From the NCBI RefSeq assembly GCF_900166625.1, contig NZ_LT800499.1, positions 3,940,541-4,004,540 of the forward strand: 64,000 nt of DNA. The letters run 5' to 3'. Shown here piece by piece: positions 1 to 32,134 of this stretch (position 1 is the first letter of the stretch; every line of letters starts with the position of its first letter). The translations under genes were made by a program, and so were the position numbers. The notes below the pieces were generated by a model. The model was not told where the DNA came from. It ran no database searches and saw nothing but the letters and a program-made list of their open reading frames with translations. The stretch is from Halobacillus massiliensis (GTDB taxonomy: Bacteria > Bacillota > Bacilli > Bacillales > Halobacillaceae).

Positions 1-1161
<1,161 letters not shown>

Positions 1162-1286
1162 GTAGTTTGACTTGCTCATTTGCACACCGAATGTGCTTCT
1201 TAAAAAATTCGATCTATATAATATAGAAAGAAATGTTTTGACGTACTGGTTGGTTCGTTCAGTTTTCAAAGATCAAATTGTCTTAA

Positions 1287-1363
<77 letters not shown>

Positions 1364-1385
1364 CAATATCACATCTAGTAAATAA

Positions 1386-1459
1386 TGGAGCGGGTGAAGG
1401 GAATCGAACCCTCATCATCAGCTTGGAAGGCTGAGGTTTTACCACTAAACTACACCCGC
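1386..1459 (-). tRNA. tRNA-Gly (TCC)
   Basis: Cloverleaf of 74 nt with anticodon TCC in the loop CTTCCAA and an encoded CCA. It lies between Pro and Ile in the array. Confidence 0.97.
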
Positions 1460-1509
1460 ATATAAAGTTTAATTGATAAGTAGATTTTTTAGCATCGATA
1501 GAACTCTCA

Positions 1510-1586
1510 TGGTCGGGAAGACAGGATTCGAACCTGCGACCCCTTGGTCCCAAACCAAGTGCTCTACCAAGCTGAGCTACTTCCCG
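1510..1586 (-). tRNA. tRNA-Pro (TGG)
   Basis: Cloverleaf of 77 nt with anticodon TGG and an encoded CCA. A 50-nt AT-rich spacer separates it from Gly. I saw no clear promoter in that spacer. Confidence 0.97.
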
Positions 1587-1594
1587 TAAGTAAA

Positions 1595-1671
<77 letters not shown>

Positions 1672-1682
1672 AAAACATATTA

Positions 1683-1771
1683 TGGTGCCGAGGGCCGGAC
1701 TCGAACCGGCACGGTGGAAACCCACCGCAGGATTTTAAGTCCTGTGCGTCTGCCAATTCCGCCACCCCGGC
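1683..1771 (-). tRNA. tRNA-Leu (TAA)
   Basis: Class II tRNA of 89 nt with a long variable arm, anticodon TAA and an encoded CCA. Only 11 nt separate it from the following Arg, leaving no room for a separate promoter. Confidence 0.97.
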
Positions 1772-1821
1772 ACGACACTTGCTAGTAAGGTTTGTATCTT
1801 ATATCACGGTTGTAAGTAAAA

Positions 1822-1896
1822 TGGAGCGGAAGACGGGATTCGAACCCGCGACCCCCACCTTGGCAAGGTGGTGTTCTACCACTGAACTACTTCCGC
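1822..1896 (-). tRNA. tRNA-Gly (GCC)
   Basis: Cloverleaf with anticodon GCC in the loop TTGCCAA and an encoded CCA. It is a second glycine isoacceptor in the same array. Confidence 0.97.
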
Positions 1897-1902
1897 GTAA
1901 AA

Positions 1903-1984
1903 TGCGGGTGGAGGGACTTGAACCCCCACGCCGTGAAGCACTAGATCCTAAATCTAGCGTGTCTGCCAATTCCACCACACCCGC
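1903..1984 (-). tRNA. tRNA-Leu (TAG)
   Basis: Class II tRNA of 82 nt with anticodon TAG. The 3' CCA is not encoded: the acceptor stem is followed by A and then TTTT. An identical gene body lies at 7861-7942. Confidence 0.96.
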
Positions 1985-1991
1985 TAATAAA

Positions 1992-2067
1992 TGGTGAGCC
2001 ATGGAGGGCTCGAACCTCCGACCCTCTGATTAAAAGTCAGATGCTCTACCAACTGAGCTAATGGCTC
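1992..2067 (-). tRNA. tRNA-Lys (TTT)
   Basis: Cloverleaf of 76 nt with anticodon TTT and an encoded CCA. The same tRNA recurs at 7951-8026. Confidence 0.97.
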
Positions 2068-2089
2068 TTAACGAAAAACAAGGACTAAA

Positions 2090-2165
<76 letters not shown>

Positions 2166-2169
2166 AAAA

Positions 2170-2245
2170 TGGTGGAGGATGCAGGGCTCGAACCTGCGAC
2201 CCCTTGCTTGTAAGGCAAGTGCTCTCCCAGCTGAGCTAATCCTCC
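2170..2245 (-). tRNA. tRNA-Val (TAC)
   Basis: Cloverleaf of 76 nt with anticodon TAC and an encoded CCA. It begins about 11 nt after the 3' end of 5S rRNA, so it must be processed from the rRNA precursor. Confidence 0.97.
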
Positions 2246-2256
2246 GGATTATGTAA

Positions 2257-2371
2257 GGTATGGCAGCGTCCTACTCTCACGGGGGTAAACCCGACTACCA
2301 TCGGCGCTGAAGAGCTTAACTGCTGTGTTCGGCATGGGAACAGGTGTGACCTCTTCGCTATCGCCACCAAA
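2257..2371 (-). rRNA. 5S ribosomal RNA
   Basis: The reverse strand begins TTTGGTGGCGATAGCGAAGA and ends GACGCTGCCATACC, the usual Bacillaceae 5S termini. It is about 115 nt. It lies 131 nt after the 23S gene and runs straight into tRNA-Val with no terminator between. Confidence 0.95.
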
Positions 2372-2502
2372 CCTTATTTTTTAGGGACAAGATATATTAT
2401 ATTGTCCTTTTGGGAAAATATCAAGGGTTTTTAAAAACTTTTTAAATAAACCCTCAAAACTGGATAAGACTGCTTTCTATCAAACCACGAAAGAATTAAA
2501 AG

Positions 2503-5425
<2,923 letters not shown>

Positions 5426-5579
5426 CATCTTCGTGAAAAGACTTTTTCTTACGTTGGTTTGATGTCTTGTCATATCTTATCCAGTTTTCAAGGTTCACAA
5501 GTTTGAGAGTTTGATCTCTCAAAACTGAACAACCAATCCAGTACGTTTTCCGAAGGAAACGGCGCAAACGCCGCTCCTT

Positions 5580-7156
<1,577 letters not shown>

Positions 7157-7281
7157 GTAGTTTGACTTGCTCATTTGCACACCGAATGTGCTTCTTAAAA
7201 AATTCGATCTATATAATATAGAAAGAAATGTTTTGACGTACTGGTTGGTTCGTTCAGTTTTCAAAGATCAAATTGTCTTAA

Positions 7282-7358
<77 letters not shown>

Positions 7359-7380
7359 CAATATCACATCTAGTAAATAA

Positions 7381-7454
7381 TGGAGCGGGTGAAGGGAATC
7401 GAACCCTCATCATCAGCTTGGAAGGCTGAGGTTTTACCACTAAACTACACCCGC
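7381..7454 (-). tRNA. tRNA-Gly (TCC), second copy
   Basis: Identical to 1386-1459. Anticodon TCC, CCA encoded. Confidence 0.97.
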
Positions 7455-7504
7455 ATATAAAGTTTAATTGATAAGTAGATTTTTTAGCATCGATAGAACT
7501 CTCA

Positions 7505-7581
7505 TGGTCGGGAAGACAGGATTCGAACCTGCGACCCCTTGGTCCCAAACCAAGTGCTCTACCAAGCTGAGCTACTTCCCG
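7505..7581 (-). tRNA. tRNA-Pro (TGG), second copy
   Basis: Identical to 1510-1586. Anticodon TGG, CCA encoded. Confidence 0.97.
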
Positions 7582-7589
7582 TAAGTAAA

Positions 7590-7666
<77 letters not shown>

Positions 7667-7686
7667 TTATTGAAGCGACATATTCT

Positions 7687-7715
7687 AATATATCATGCTT
7701 CAGCTTGTGTTGCAA
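7687..7715 (-). promoter_or_regulatory. Sigma-A promoter of the Arg-Pro-Gly-Ile-16S-23S-5S unit
   Basis: The -35 box TTGCAA (7710-7715) and -10 box TATATT (7687-7692) are separated by exactly 17 nt. They lie 20 nt upstream of tRNA-Arg. It is the closest upstream promoter to the complete 16S gene. Confidence 0.8.
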
Positions 7716-7738
7716 GAACTTTTTTAAAAAAACTTTAG

Positions 7739-7822
<84 letters not shown>

Positions 7823-7860
7823 TAATTGATTAAGTAATTCCCTAAAGCTTAATTACTAAG

Positions 7861-7942
7861 TGCGGGTGGAGGGACTTGAACCCCCACGCCGTGAAGCACT
7901 AGATCCTAAATCTAGCGTGTCTGCCAATTCCACCACACCCGC
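7861..7942 (-). tRNA. tRNA-Leu (TAG), second copy
   Basis: Same gene body as 1903-1984, with anticodon TAG and no encoded CCA. Confidence 0.96.
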
Positions 7943-7950
7943 AAAATGAA

Positions 7951-8026
7951 TGGTGAGCCATGGAGGGCTCGAACCTCCGACCCTCTGATTAAAAGTCAGA
8001 TGCTCTACCAACTGAGCTAATGGCTC
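7951..8026 (-). tRNA. tRNA-Lys (TTT), second copy
   Basis: Same as 1992-2067, with anticodon TTT and CCA encoded. It is the first gene behind the promoter at 8096-8124. Confidence 0.97.
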
Positions 8027-8095
8027 TTAATGAAATGTTAGATCTCATAAGTCTGTTACTTATTTTATTTAAAGCTTGTTTAAAGCACAAGAACT

Positions 8096-8124
8096 ATCAT
8101 ATAACTTTCAAAAAGGTTTGTCAA
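8096..8124 (-). promoter_or_regulatory. Sigma-A promoter upstream of tRNA-Lys
   Basis: A perfect -35 box TTGACA (8119-8124), a 17-nt spacer and -10 TATGAT (8096-8101). It sits in the 116-nt gap between tRNA-Gln and tRNA-Lys and would boost transcription of Lys-Leu-Leu and, by read-through, the rRNA unit. Confidence 0.85.
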
Positions 8125-8142
8125 CCCTTTTCACACATAAAA

Positions 8143-8217
8143 TGGCTGGGCCAGCTGGATTCGAACCAGCGCATGACGGTACCAAAAACCGTTGCCTTAC
8201 CGCTTGGCTATGGCCCA
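8143..8217 (-). tRNA. tRNA-Gln (TTG)
   Basis: Cloverleaf of 75 nt with anticodon TTG in the loop TTTTGGT and an encoded CCA. Confidence 0.97.
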
Positions 8218-8223
8218 CCTAAA

Positions 8224-8300
8224 TGGCGGTCCGGACGGGACTCGAACCCGCGACCTCCTGCGTGACAGGCAGGCATTCTAACCAACTGAACTACCGGACC
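8224..8300 (-). tRNA. tRNA-Asp (GTC)
   Basis: Cloverleaf of 77 nt with anticodon GTC and an encoded CCA. As I recall, the B. subtilis trnS array lacks Asp at this place (Glu is followed by Gln). Confidence 0.97.
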
Positions 8301-8323
8301 CAAACCTAAATGTATGTAAAAAG

Positions 8324-8395
8324 TGACCCGTACGGGATTCGAACCCGTGTTACCGCCGTGAAAGGGCGGTGTCTTAACCGCTTGACCAACGGGCC
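8324..8395 (-). tRNA. tRNA-Glu (TTC)
   Basis: Cloverleaf of about 72 nt with anticodon TTC. The acceptor stem is followed by A and then CTT, so the full CCA is not encoded. Confidence 0.95.
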
Positions 8396-8411
8396 ATATT
8401 CAAAAATGTAA

Positions 8412-8502
8412 TGGCGGAGAAGGAGGGATTTGAACCCTCGCGCCGCTTGCGCGACCTACACCCTTAGCAGGGGCGCCTCTTCAGCCACTTGAGTACTTCT
8501 CC
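8412..8502 (-). tRNA. tRNA-Ser (GCT)
   Basis: Class II tRNA of 91 nt with a long variable arm, anticodon GCT and an encoded CCA. Confidence 0.96.
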
Positions 8503-8506
8503 GTAA

Positions 8507-8581
8507 TGGCTCCACAGGTAGGATTCGAACCTACGACCGATCGGTTAACAGCCGATTGCTCTACCACTGAGCTACTGTGGA
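8507..8581 (-). tRNA. tRNA-Asn (GTT)
   Basis: Cloverleaf of 75 nt with anticodon GTT and an encoded CCA. It is the first gene of the array, directly behind the tandem promoters. Confidence 0.97.
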
Positions 8582-29509: not shown

Positions 29510-31324
29510 TCAGCTTTCCAGCCACTGGTTATATAAATTCTCAATTCTCCTTTTCAAGGTATGACGTCTATTTCCTGATTCTTCAGAAGCCAGCTGATTC
29601 TCTAACTCCTCAATTTGCTGTTCATAGCTTTTCATTTGTTTTTCATGGCTTCTCGTTTGCTGCTGTTTATGTGTTTTTTTGACTTCCTTCTTTAGTCTAT
29701 TTTCTTCAAGCAGTTCTTCCCAGCGGCTGCGGGTTTGCTGATAGTTTCCTAAAAAACGGTGAAGCTTGCCGTCGACTAAGTAGGCAGTTTCATTAAAGCA
29801 CTGATTTAAAAAGTAGCGGTCATGCGATATTCCAATTATGGTACCAGAGAACCCTTTTAAAGCTTCTTCAAGCACTTCCTGTGATTCAATATCTAAATGG
29901 TTGGTCGGCTCATCCAAAACGAGCAGGTTAATTCCTATATGCATAAAAACAGCTAACTGCAGCCTCATTCGTTCCCCACCGCTTAAGTGGCCGATATTTT
30001 TAAACACATCGTAGCCATAAAACATAAAGCCTGCGAGGATGTGGCGGGCCTGCCCTTCAGTTACAATGACATGTTCTCTGAAATAATCAATCAGTCGGCA
30101 ATTGTCTTCAATCCCCTGAAGCGGGTGCTGAGGAAGATAGCCCACTTGAATGGAGGAACCTTGTTGAACTTTCCCCTTATCTGCCTTGAGCTCACCGAGC
30201 AGAATTTTTATAAAAGTAGACTTACCGCTTCCATTTGTCCCAATGACAGCCAGCCGATCCTGAAAGCGAAGGTGCAGAGAAACATCTTTAAGAACATGGT
30301 TATCATCAAAACTGATACCAACATTTTCAGCAAGCAGTACGTTCTCCCCGCTTCGCTCCTTCATTTCCAGAGCCAGGTTCATGCGTTTTGGATCAATTAT
30401 CGGCCGATCCATTTTCTCCATGCGCTCAAGAGCCCGCTCCATACTTTTCGCCTTTTTAAAAAGTTTCTCATTCGGAGGGTTGGCTTCATTCGCCCACTGC
30501 CGCAAACGCCGGATGGCTTCCTTCATTTTTTTAATCTTCTTCTGCTGCTCCTGGTACTGGTGAAATTCCGCCAGCAGCTTCTCTTCTTTCTGCTTCTCAA
30601 AAGAGCTGTAATTTCCTTTGTAACGCTCTGTATCACCTGATTCAACATCAATGATGGTGTGTACGACAGCATCAAGAAACTCCCGGTCATGCGAAATAAT
30701 GCATACAGCTCCCTTGTATTCCTGCAAGTACTTTTCAAGCCACTCAATCGCATGAAGATCCAGGTGGTTTGTCGGTTCATCAAGGAGAAGGATATCCGGT
30801 TTTTCGAGCAGTATTTTTCCGAGAGACAGCTTTGTTCTCTCACCGCCGCTTAAGCGGCTGACCGGCTGATCCAGCAAATGATGGATGTGAAGTCCGTGTG
30901 CGACCTTCTGTACCATGGACTCCATTTCATATCCGCCTTTTTCCGTAAATTGTTCCTGTATTTCACCGTATTTCTTTAATGCTTTTTCCAGGCAGTCTGG
31001 ATCAATCATTTCCTTCTCAAGCTTCTTCATGTCATCGAGCATTTGATGAAGTTCCTTAAATGCACTCATCAAATAAGCCGTTCCGTTATCATCAAATGTT
31101 TCTGAAATCTGCTTCAAATAACCAATTGTGAGTCCTTTCTTAATAAACAGATTCCCGCCGTCAAGCGATTCTTCCTTTGTGATCAGCTTAAATATTGTGG
31201 TTTTTCCACTCCCGTTTCTACCGACTAACCCGACTTTCTCTCCTGCATCAATTTCAAAGTTCAGGGATTCAAAAATAACTTTTCCCCCGATTATTTTATA
31301 AGCATCTTTCAGCGTAATATTCAT
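29510..31324 (-). CDS. ABC-F family ATP-binding protein (ribosome-associated)
   Basis: A 604-residue protein with two ABC ATPase domains and no membrane segment. Walker A of domain 1 is GRNGSGKT (35-42) and of domain 2 is GTNGSGKST. Signature motifs are LSGGERTKLSLG and LSGGERMRLQLA. The interdomain linker is long, charged and helical, and the C terminus is a glutamine- and lysine-rich coiled coil. ABC-F proteins act on the ribosome, either in translation or by displacing antibiotics (Vga, Msr, VmlR types). The ATG at 31324 follows AGGAGG at 7 nt. The attenuator leader upstream favours an antibiotic-response role. Confidence 0.9.
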   Translation of the reverse strand: MNITLKDAYKIIGGKVIFESLNFEIDAGEKVGLVGRNGSGKTTIFKLITKEESLDGGNLFIKKGLTIGYLKQISETFDDNGTAYLMSAFKELHQMLDDMKKLEKEMIDPDCLEKALKKYGEIQEQFTEKGGYEMESMVQKVAHGLHIHHLLDQPVSRLSGGERTKLSLGKILLEKPDILLLDEPTNHLDLHAIEWLEKYLQEYKGAVCIISHDREFLDAVVHTIIDVESGDTERYKGNYSSFEKQKEEKLLAEFHQYQEQQKKIKKMKEAIRRLRQWANEANPPNEKLFKKAKSMERALERMEKMDRPIIDPKRMNLALEMKERSGENVLLAENVGISFDDNHVLKDVSLHLRFQDRLAVIGTNGSGKSTFIKILLGELKADKGKVQQGSSIQVGYLPQHPLQGIEDNCRLIDYFREHVIVTEGQARHILAGFMFYGYDVFKNIGHLSGGERMRLQLAVFMHIGINLLVLDEPTNHLDIESQEVLEEALKGFSGTIIGISHDRYFLNQCFNETAYLVDGKLHRFLGNYQQTRSRWEELLEENRLKKEVKKTHKQQQTRSHEKQMKSYEQQIEELENQLASEESGNRRHTLKRRIENLYNQWLES

Positions 31325-31347
31325 TTGTTTTCCTCCTAAAGGCAAAC

Positions 31348-31382
31348 AAAAAAAGCCCAAGGCCTCACAGGACCTTCGGCTT
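31348..31382 (-). terminator. Attenuator hairpin in the ABC-F leader
   Basis: On the minus strand, arms AAGCCGAAGG and CCTTGGGCTT enclose a 10-nt loop (31353-31382) and are followed by seven T. It ends only about 12 nt before the ribosome binding site of the ABC-F gene and lies downstream of a short leader ORF. It is in the right place for premature termination. Confidence 0.82.
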
Positions 31383-31406
31383 TTAGACGTTCGCAGTCTG
31401 AAATAA

Positions 31407-31422
31407 GGTATGAGACGTTATC
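31407..31422 (-). promoter_or_regulatory. Leader segment complementary to the leader-peptide start
   Basis: The plus-strand sequence GGTATGAGACGTTATC here is complementary, with a small bulge, to the segment at 31531-31548 that spans the leader start codon. Pairing of the two would sequester the leader start. When free, the ATACCTT part could pair with AAGGT in the first arm of the attenuator. Confidence 0.5.
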
Positions 31423-31433
31423 ATTTTTTCTAT

Positions 31434-31538
31434 TTAACTGCTAAAAATGGGCATACTTCCCCCTTGTACAGTTAAATCATGAAAAAGCGCACGATTGATA
31501 TATAATAATTCACGATCAATAACGTGCTTTGATAACAT
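31434..31538 (-). CDS. Leader peptide of the ABC-F gene (34 aa)
   Basis: A short ORF on the minus strand that starts with ATG at 31536-31538, 8 nt after AGGAGG, and ends with TAA at 31434. The peptide begins MLSKHVIDRELLYINRALF. Its start region can pair with 31407-31422 just before the attenuator. As known for vmlR and Listeria lmo0919, ribosome stalling on such a leader under antibiotic can prevent termination. The ORF is inferred from signals; no homology is claimed. Confidence 0.65.
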   Translation of the reverse strand: MLSKHVIDRELLYINRALFHDLTVQGGSMPIFSS

Positions 31539-31600
31539 CCTTCATACCTCCTTTCTCTGCCTTTAGTTGATTATAGTATAACGCAAATGAACAAGGTGTG

Positions 31601-32062
31601 CTAGTTCAATTTAGCCGCATAAATCCCGAGCTTTTTCAACAGTTCAATGGCCTGCTTCTTTTCCTCATCTTTCAGACCATCGGTAATCTTCTCGATCTGC
31701 TGCCAATGATCAGGAAAAATGTCGTGCAGGAGCTGTTTCCCCGTATCATTAATTGACGCATACGTAATCCTTCGATCATTCGGATCAGGAACTCTTTCAA
31801 TGTAACCTTTTTTCTCAAGCTTATCTACAACGTACGTAATACTGCCGCTGGCAAGTAAAATCTTTTCCCCAATTTTTTGAAGCGGCTGTTCTCCTTCATG
31901 ATACAGCAGCTCCAATACTCCAAATTCGGTCGGATTGAGCCCGTATCTTTGAATATCGTCTTTTACAAGGTCCGAAATTGCGCGATTCGCTTTGGATAAG
32001 ACAACAAACAATTTTAATGACGGATCCTGTTTTTTTCTAAGGTATGATTCCTGTTCGTCCAT
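31601..32062 (-). CDS. MarR family transcriptional regulator
   Basis: A 153-residue winged-helix regulator. The DNA-binding part includes LQKIGEKILLASGSITYVVDKLEKKGYIER, with the wing at PDPNDRRITYA, the standard MarR signature. The ATG at 32062 is chosen for the purine-rich AGAGGAAGAGG upstream; a GTG at 32083 is possible. It precedes the ABC-F gene on the same strand (about 60 nt to the leader ORF). The pair may be functionally linked, though the ABC-F leader appears to have its own control. Confidence 0.9.
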   Translation of the reverse strand: MDEQESYLRKKQDPSLKLFVVLSKANRAISDLVKDDIQRYGLNPTEFGVLELLYHEGEQPLQKIGEKILLASGSITYVVDKLEKKGYIERVPDPNDRRITYASINDTGKQLLHDIFPDHWQQIEKITDGLKDEEKKQAIELLKKLGIYAAKLN

Positions 32063-32134
32063 ATTCCTCTTCCTCTCATCCACCCTATTTCTTACGTTTA
32101 ATATAACAAAGAATCAAAGATTCCTAAAGTATTA

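What the first reader, a model, noticed from the sequence alone, without database searches (positions are those of the whole stretch)
29510..31560. Leader peptide plus attenuator in front of an ABC-F gene
A 34-codon ORF with its own AGGAGG binding site (31434-31538) precedes a terminator hairpin (31348-31382) that ends about 12 nt before the ABC-F ribosome binding site. The leader start region (31531-31548) is complementary to 31407-31422, and the latter's ATACCTT can pair with AAGGT in the attenuator. This gives mutually exclusive folds, as in ribosome-mediated attenuation of vmlR and lmo0919. The peptide sequence itself, with a run LLYINRALF, is not one I know. A MarR gene lies upstream.
Basis: partly seen in the sequence, partly recalled or inferred. 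Interest (0 to 1): 0.7.

Follow-up and report, generated by a model that had tools for sequence, protein, structure and literature searches.

The report
Leader switch before an ABC-F gene
Upstream of a ribosome-protection-like (ABC-F) gene lies a conserved RNA switch with a tiny leader gene, related to the Listeria RNA rliI; it carries a short hairpin motif that recurs in front of many unrelated genes resembling antibiotic-resistance genes, where it may make RNA polymerase wait for a ribosome.

Summary
In detail: the 34-codon leader ORF, the helix pairing its start region (31531-31548) with 31407-31422, and the terminator (31348-31384) are real. All 32 family orthologues fetched carry them; the helix covaries, and codons 2-21 are conserved as a peptide. 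The element matches Rfam RF01487 (rliI, Listeria) over its full length, below the gathering score; a review reports rliI as a putative conditional terminator before lmo2760. A covariance model hits 181 of 397 genomes of the order. It fits the NusG pause consensus in most relatives outside the family, imperfectly in the window. As a pattern it occurs 98 times in 299 genomes of the order; the scrambled-loop control gives 0. In named genomes 89 of 100 hits with a scored downstream ORF precede ABC-F, Erm, RlmA-type, Cat, Vat/CatB-like, MFS or MATE genes. Inducer, pausing and resistance are untested. New variant of a known kind.

The parts
29510..31324 (-). ABC-F gene, 604 aa, the presumably regulated gene
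   Evidence: NCBIfam NF000355 444.7 bits over cut-off 380; below the listed Vga, Sal, Msr, Lsa, OptrA and CplR cut-offs
31434..31538 (-). leader ORF, 34 codons
   Evidence: ORF with SD in 46 of 50 fetched ABC-F loci; codons 2-21 pN/pS 0.44 in frame vs 0.80 and 1.12 in the other frames, 0.08 and 0.30 in two subgroups
31547..31554 (-). Shine-Dalgarno of the leader ORF, AAAGGAGG
   Evidence: sequence
31531..31548 (-). 5' strand of helix P1 (covers SD edge and start codon)
   Evidence: covarying helix, 97.3% of cells paired in 32 relatives
31407..31422 (-). 3' strand of helix P1 (anti-antiterminator)
   Evidence: as above
31488..31529 (-). hairpin P2 (AAGCACG...CGTGCG)
   Evidence: 89.6% (outer) and 75.8% (inner) of cells paired
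31433..31476 (-). hairpin P3, outer stem TTTAACTG/CAGTTAAA
   Evidence: 91.0% of cells paired in 32 relatives; covariation in 41 divergent rows
31449..31463 (-). cap of P3, GGGGGAAGTATGCCC, conserved GGG..GT.TG.CC
   Evidence: cap pattern matched in all 47 window-type ABC-F loci L001-L047; cap codons pN/pS 1.75 in frame, i.e. not selected as peptide
31438..31448 (-). T-run after the cap, ATTTTTAGCAG (one mismatch to the NusG pause motif TTNTTT)
31402..31411 (-). possible antiterminator strand ATACCTTATT
   Evidence: weak (-6.2 kcal/mol, p 0.2)
31348..31384 (-). intrinsic terminator hairpin and T-run
31332..31337 (-). Shine-Dalgarno AGGAGG of the ABC-F gene
   Evidence: sequence
31601..32083 (-). 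MarR-family regulator gene directly upstream
   Evidence: Pfam PF01047 69.4 bits

Best explanation
The region is a ribosome-controlled transcription attenuator of the rliI type in front of a chromosomal ABC-F gene. Shown by comparison: a conserved leader peptide under coding selection; helix P1, which covers the leader's start codon and the edge of its ribosome site; hairpin P3 with a sequence-conserved cap; a terminator in front of the gene. Inferred: after making the cap and T-run, RNA polymerase pauses (NusG-dependent in most relatives outside the family), about 15 nt before it starts the P1 3' strand, so a ribosome can start the leader ORF before P1 closes it. Without a drug the ribosome finishes and leaves, P1 and the terminator form, and transcription stops. 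When an inhibitor of the large ribosomal subunit holds a ribosome (or a queue) over the start region, P1 cannot form, the freed strand interferes with the terminator kinetically, and the ABC-F gene is transcribed. The ABC-F protein then presumably protects the ribosome.
For: Conservation of ORF, SD and spacing (46 of 50 loci; ATG-to-cap distance a multiple of 3 in 45 of 46). Purifying selection on codons 2-21. P1 and P3 covariation. P1 also found in divergent families (18 of 33 at p<0.05). Model R1 hits 181 of 397 genomes of the order; of 20 best copies fetched, 19 have a window-type ABC-F downstream and one runs off its contig. Full-length kinship with rliI, reported as a putative conditional terminator of lmo2760. 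Cap plus T-run geometry equals the published NusG pause consensus, and the host's NusG has N and T at 81-82, the residues named for the T-rich motif in B. subtilis. A pause that lets a leader peptide start before its SD is hidden is shown for tlrB; vmlR has a NusG pause too, and a TTNTTT site was noted in msrDL.
Against: The antiterminator is weak and does not beat the terminator at equilibrium. In the window's own family the T-run after the cap is often lost: TTNTTT in 6 of 32, mean 3.2 T of 6, against 47 of 73 and 5.4-5.8 T of 6 in the other groups; the window has ATTTTT. In vmlR a mutation of the pause hairpin SL-2 behaved nearly like wild type. The conserved peptide part RA[IL]F[H]D lies too far from the start for a ribosome there to cover P1 directly, so its role needs queueing or another effect. 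No expression data for this organism.
Confidence: 0.62

Rival explanations
1. Ribosome-mediated attenuation exactly: P1 and the ATACCTT/AAGGT antiterminator are the whole switch, and the cap hairpin has no own role.
For: Leader ORF, P1 and terminator conserved; known ABC-F attenuators work this way (vmlR passages; cplR passages); vmlR SL-2 mutant nearly wild type.
Against: Cap loop conserved at RNA level while codons change, conserved also where it is untranslated or out of frame and before unrelated genes; antiterminator weak.
Confidence: 0.2
2. The element is a riboswitch-like aptamer that binds a small molecule directly; the ORF is secondary.
For: Multi-stem structure with sequence-conserved loops; strong z-score.
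Against: Coding selection on the ORF; the cap sits before genes that resemble resistance genes for different drug classes, which share no one ligand but share the ribosome as target.
Confidence: 0.08
3. The RNA acts mainly in trans as a small RNA, as first reported for Listeria RliI.
For: RliI binds lmo1035-lmo1036 mRNA and its overexpression lowers it, according to the review.
Against: Position next to a window-type ABC-F gene in 21 of 23 rliI hits, window included; leader ORF directly before the gene in the 32 family orthologues fetched.
Confidence: 0.05
4. The cap is only an inherited remnant that spread with resistance genes and is not selected.
For: Many contexts could share descent; resistance leaders may recombine (inference).
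Against: GT.TG kept in all 47 window-type loci and in three separate ABC-F clades while flanks, frames and uORFs differ; scrambled-loop control 0 of 299 genomes.
Confidence: 0.05

Closest known systems
RliI, Listeria (Rfam RF01487)
   Same: Full-length match 1-239 and, in alignments of relatives, the same layout of outer helix, two inner hairpins and terminator; stands before an ABC ATPase gene (lmo2760); RF01487 hits stand before window-type ABC-F genes in 21 of 23 cases, window included.
   Different: Score 29.2 bits, below the gathering score 45; Rfam lists it as an sRNA; no leader peptide is mentioned in the passages I saw.
vmlR leader, Bacillus subtilis (PMC9226507, passages)
   Same: uORF hidden in an anti-antiterminator helix, terminator before an ABC-F gene, NusG TTNTTT pause with a putative pause hairpin.
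   Different: Three-codon uORF (MIN) against about 34 codons; the window's protein passes no named subfamily model; SL-2 as described (GCUAUUU) does not look like the GGG-CCC cap.
lmo0919/vgaL leader Rli53 (PMC8079631, passages)
   Same: Anti-antiterminator over a short ORF, lincomycin-induced read-through.
   Different: Three-residue ORF; no sequence kinship tested here.
tlrB (yxjB) leader, Bacillus subtilis (PMC6851288, passages)
   Same: A NusG-dependent pause gives time to start the leader peptide before its SD is hidden. A cap-motif hit (L116) stands before an RlmA-type gene.
   Different: Nine-residue RYR peptide, downstream 23S methyltransferase; whether tlrB has this cap was not checked.
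ermK/ermD leader (MTHSMRLRFPTLNQ; PMC4335068, passages)
   Same: The cap motif follows an ORF of this type in several fetched Erm, RlmA-type and Msr-like contexts.
   Different: Different peptide; the cap lies after the stop codon there.
'ABC-leader' Fig. 4e of Naville and Gautheret 2010 (PMC2965389, passages and section 9 read)
   Same: Predicted attenuator in bacilli 15 nt upstream of an ABC gene of unknown specificity; may be this element.
   Different: Its alignment is in a supplement that I could not read, so identity is unverified.

Membership tests
uORF-controlled attenuators of resistance ABC-F genes (vmlR, vgaL, cplR type) | Short ORF with SD before the gene, conserved in relatives | tested here: met
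   46 of 50 loci; pN/pS
uORF-controlled attenuators of resistance ABC-F genes (vmlR, vgaL, cplR type) | Anti-antiterminator helix overlapping the ORF start, and an intrinsic terminator before the gene | tested here: met
uORF-controlled attenuators of resistance ABC-F genes (vmlR, vgaL, cplR type) | Antiterminator that displaces the terminator when the ribosome is held | tested here: inconclusive
   strand present but weak; terminator 0.59 with the start blocked, 0.61 free
uORF-controlled attenuators of resistance ABC-F genes (vmlR, vgaL, cplR type) | Induced by a ribosome inhibitor; the gene confers resistance | not testable with these tools
   needs expression and MIC data
Rfam RF01487 rliI | Score at or above the gathering score of 45 bits | tested here: not met
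   29.2 bits, E 5.2e-6, model 1-239; best relative L009 39.2; 0 of 348 class genomes over the cut-off
Rfam RF01487 rliI | Same position before an orthologous ABC gene | tested here: met
   21 of 23 RF01487 hits (window included) next to ABC-F homologues; Listeria itself not fetched by name, lmo2760 from the review
NusG-dependent RNA polymerase pause | RNA hairpin directly upstream of TTNTTT at -11 to -6 | tested here: inconclusive
   consensus as; exact TTNTTT directly after the cap in 6 of 14, 15 of 20, 11 of 20 and 15 of 19 outside the family, 6 of 32 in it; window ATTTTT
NusG-dependent RNA polymerase pause | NusG with N81-T82 in the host | tested here: met
   N and T at 81-82 of the host NusG in its own numbering
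NusG-dependent RNA polymerase pause | Measured pause | not testable with these tools
   needs RNET-seq or in vitro transcription
Named resistance ABC-F subfamilies (Vga, Sal, Msr, Lsa, OptrA, CplR) | NCBIfam cut-off of the subfamily | tested here: not met
   of the 25 best of 193 listed models only the general NF000355 is passed

The most novel reading that the evidence does not exclude
The cap hairpin GGG-R-N-N-M-GT-N-TG-YCC followed by a T-run is a portable RNA/DNA module, a dedicated polymerase-pause or coupling signal with a required loop sequence beyond the generic NusG T-motif. Bacilli have reused it in the leaders of many unrelated genes that resemble resistance genes for drugs acting on the large ribosomal subunit (ABC-F of several clades, Erm, RlmA-type, CatA, Vat/CatB-like, Mef-like and other MFS, MATE). 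The motif itself would then predict genes induced by ribosome inhibitors.
Probability: 0.5. Interest if true: 0.75.

Novelty: new variant of a known kind. Interest (0 to 1): 0.62.

Why it matters
It ties a Listeria 'sRNA' family to a leader-peptide switch for ABC-F genes found in nearly half of the sampled genomes of a large order of Bacilli. It also gives a short sequence signature that marks leaders of genes resembling ribosome-drug resistance genes. The authors of the vmlR study wrote that a systematic search for NusG pause motifs may uncover NusG in other inducible resistance; this motif makes that question directly testable by Term-seq, RNET-seq and reporters, and could flag unknown inducible genes.

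Tried and rejected
Rfam at gathering score: no RNA family at the leader; only the relaxed search showed rliI, and among 18 relatives given to the relaxed search 7 matched rliI. RNAalifold on 41 divergent leaders found only P3 and the cap, not P1, probably because the P1 strands are out of register between families; P1 was therefore counted in one family and by duplex energy elsewhere (33 of 34 leaders, L040 dropped for lack of a T-run). For P3 over 41 rows one measure is not above chance: 6 pairs with double changes, reached by 66 of 500 shuffles; the others are.

Peptide-level reading of the cap was rejected: in-frame pN/pS 1.75 (0.26 in frame +1, 1.86 in frame +2); cap out of frame in L047; untranslated in Erm-type leaders; in 15 loci of genus g153 the cap lies 82 nt from the start, out of frame, and 14 of the 15 ORFs stop before it. 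The idea that the cap is universal in Firmicutes was rejected: outside the order only 2 of 391 genomes in the phylum sample have it (5 of 398 in all; the other three, window included, belong to the order). Of these two, G1033 precedes an MFS gene and G1030 looks like a repeat at contig ends.

Background of the cap pattern: 9 of the 100 scored genome-contig hits lie before unrelated genes and 18 of 118 had no ORF of 150 aa starting within 1.2 kb. Six viral-contig hits showed no resistance-like ORF among the few that I printed (judged by eye) and four of them share one repeat. The strict 22-letter pattern matches only 8 of the 32 family loci, because the family has lost the T-run. The looser pattern GGG-9N-YCC-N-T5-A hits 135 of 150 genomes, so the loop, not the hairpin, carries the specificity. 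A sigma-70 scan found no promoter on the minus strand. The ABC-F function could not be narrowed by PDB sequence search: best hits are YheS, Uup, EttA and PoxtA.

Dar et al. 2016 was not held, so its rliI data come from the review.
Full report
What is there. On the minus strand, between a MarR gene (31601-32083) and an ABC-F gene (29510-31324), lies a leader of about 230 nt. It holds a 34-codon ORF with AAAGGAGG 8 nt before its ATG, a long-range helix P1 (31531-31548 with 31407-31422), two inner hairpins (P2, P3) and an intrinsic terminator that ends 10 nt before the ABC-F ribosome site. The fold is far more stable than shuffles (-78.2 kcal/mol, z -7.6, 0 of 200).

The gene. The ABC-F protein passes NCBIfam's general model for ribosomal-protection-like ABC-F proteins (444.7 bits, cut-off 380) and none of the named subfamilies listed. 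In the sample, 32 of the 37 genomes of the window's family (window included) have a close orthologue (57% identity or more). Three other ABC-F-like genes of the same genome that I fetched carry no cap motif in the fetched stretches.

Conservation. I fetched 50 ABC-F loci. In 46 of 50 an ORF with SD stands before the gene. The four without are L045, whose cap is present but whose ORF was not found, and L048-L050, paralogues at 40-44% identity with another leader. All 32 loci of the window's family have it. The distance from ATG to the P3 cap is 75, 78, 81, 84, 87 or 90 nt in 45 of 46 and 77 in L047. In 26 family leaders without indels, codons 2-21 have pN/pS 0.44 in frame against 0.80 and 1.12 in the other frames; in two subgroups (10 and 16 sequences) the in-frame ratio is 0.08 and 0.30. 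So the peptide, with a core like LxYxxRA[IL]F[H]D, is selected as a peptide. For helix P1, 97.3% of cells pair. Over the whole structure 11 pairs have changes on both sides (5.5 in shuffles, at most 7 in slid versions). P3 covaries over 41 divergent rows (45 double-change cells against 15.0 shuffled, although the count of such pairs, 6, is reached by 66 of 500 shuffles). In 33 divergent leaders P1 beats shuffles at p<0.05 in 18.

Spread. A covariance model (R1) finds the element in 181 of 397 genomes of the order, 64 of 135 genera. Of 20 strong copies fetched (L051-L070), 19 precede a window-type ABC-F gene (47-63% identity) and L066 runs off its contig. Of 26 weaker hits in 21 genomes I fetched 20 (L071-L090): 16 precede one MFS transporter type (54-100% identity to the copy in L087), including a copy in the window's own genome (G000:C2:3634671; Pfam MFS_1). 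Those have a different leader peptide but the same P3 cap. The other four are L080, L085 and L088 (ABC-F) and L077 (no clear target).

Known kin. Rfam RF01487, the Listeria sRNA rliI, matches the leader over its whole model at 29.2 bits (gathering score 45; E 5.2e-6) and 7 of 18 relatives at up to 39.2 bits (alignments). Searching 348 genomes of the class with RF01487 gives 23 hits, none over the gathering score. In 21 of the 23 (window included) a window-type ABC-F gene lies downstream; L250 (a shorter stretch) and L261 show none. In the 15 loci of one genus (g153) the leader ORF starts with GTG and reads ...HLYILRAIFHDV[AV]; the cap lies 82 nt from the start, out of frame, and 14 of the 15 ORFs stop before it, yet the cap is conserved. 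A review (passages seen) reports RliI first as a trans-acting RNA and later, by term-seq, as a putative conditional terminator of lmo2760, an ABC ATPase gene. Naville and Gautheret 2010 show an 'ABC-leader' in bacilli 15 nt before an ABC gene of unknown specificity, which may be the same element; its alignment was out of reach.

The cap. The top of P3 reads GGGGGAAGTATGCCC in the window. The cap search pattern (GT and G[CT]C positions required, so their invariance is partly by construction) matched in all 47 window-type loci L001-L047, which were found by protein homology. Within it, codon first positions vary while third positions stay: in-frame pN/pS of the cap codons is 1.75. So the RNA (or DNA), not the peptide, is conserved there. 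In relatives outside the family the cap is followed by a T-run: 5.4-5.8 T in 6 positions on average, exact TTNTTT in 47 of 73. In the window's family it is degenerate (3.2 of 6; 6 of 32; window ATTTTT).

The cap elsewhere. The pattern GGGRNAMGTNTGYCCNTTTTTA gives 98 hits in 85 of 299 genomes of the order. The reversed pattern and a scrambled-loop pattern give none. A looser hairpin-plus-T pattern is common (135 of 150 genomes), and by eye about 30 of its roughly 150 listed hits (a capped list) have the GT.TG loop. By sequence clustering of the first such ORF these are: 70 ABC-F; 6 in an Erm cluster (one, L205, tested by hmmscan: over the Erm cut-off); 1 RlmA-type methyltransferase; 4 of the MFS type above (by sequence; L118 scanned); 2 Mef-like MFS (L126 tested, L208 by clustering); 1 CatA; 1 CatB/Vat-like; 1 FexA-like; 1 MATE; 2 other MFS; 2 methyltransferases of unknown role; 9 unrelated. 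Several scores are below NCBIfam cut-offs (RlmA, CatA, CatB/Vat, FexA, Mef and the other MFS), so these names are likenesses. The 70 ABC-F proteins range from 63% to 30% identity to the window's. A tree of 43 rows, with 30 of the 70, puts cap-bearing genes in at least three separate supported groups, one of them Msr-like. Leaders of the ermK type (ORF MTHSMRLRFPTLNx, a peptide listed in PMC4335068) carry the cap after their stop codon. Outside the order the cap is rare: 2 of 391 other genomes in the phylum sample, one of them before an MFS gene. Six viral contigs carry the pattern without a recognised target.

What the cap probably does. A 2025 review gives the NusG pause consensus as TTNTTT at -11 to -6 with an RNA hairpin 11-12 nt upstream of the paused end. 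A hairpin directly followed by T6 has that geometry. The host's NusG has N and T at positions 81-82, the residues named for reading the motif in B. subtilis. In the tlrB leader such a pause gives time to start the leader peptide before a hairpin hides its SD. P1 would hide the start here, and its 3' strand begins 26 nt after the cap, about 15 nt after the predicted pause, so a pause at the cap is well placed. This is inference; no pause was measured. A loop sequence is not part of the published pause consensus as given there, so its conservation is unexplained. In vmlR a mutant of the putative pause hairpin behaved nearly like wild type, while the T-motif mutant did not, which speaks against a simple hairpin role.

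Problems. The proposed antiterminator averages -7.3 kcal/mol against -5.3 for shuffles (6 of 32 at p<0.05) and -19 for the terminator. In divergent families it is -8.0 against -6.3 (6 of 33). With the start region masked, P1 disappears, but the finished terminator still forms (0.59 against 0.61) and the antiterminator reaches only 0.21 before the terminator's second arm exists. The switch must be kinetic, or part of it is not understood. The conserved RA[IL]F[H]D codons lie beyond the reach of a ribosome that blocks P1, unless ribosomes queue.

Literature searched for prior reports. None of the passages that I opened describes a shared cap sequence in resistance leaders; I read no paper whole. 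Most subscription papers are not held, so this is not proof of novelty. A TTNTTT site in msrDL and the pauses of vmlR and tlrB are already in print.

Verdict.

Noticed in passing
L087 (G000:C2:3634371-3637800), element at about 300-520: Second copy of the P3 cap with a different leader ORF (MHTFTVDIKVVKKYLVFMMSIFGISVVLGTSLSFFS) in front of an MFS transporter in the window's own genome; the same pairing recurs in 15 other fetched loci of related genomes.
   Followed up: partly
L101 5285-6022 and L176: The cap stands before a methyltransferase-domain protein of unknown role (Pfam Methyltransf_25 for L101); it could be an unrecognised resistance-type enzyme.
   Followed up: no
L048, L049, L050: A paralogous ABC-F clade (40-44% identity) has a quite different leader with terminator-like hairpins of its own and no cap.
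   Followed up: no
L142, L264-L267: A repeat (ttcaccaaGGGGAAAGTCTGCCCTTTTTTAgaag) in a Lachnospiraceae genome and four viral contigs matches the cap pattern, perhaps by chance.
   Followed up: no
window 1-8581: Two rRNA operons (one cut by the window start) with clusters of tRNA genes between and after them.
   Followed up: no
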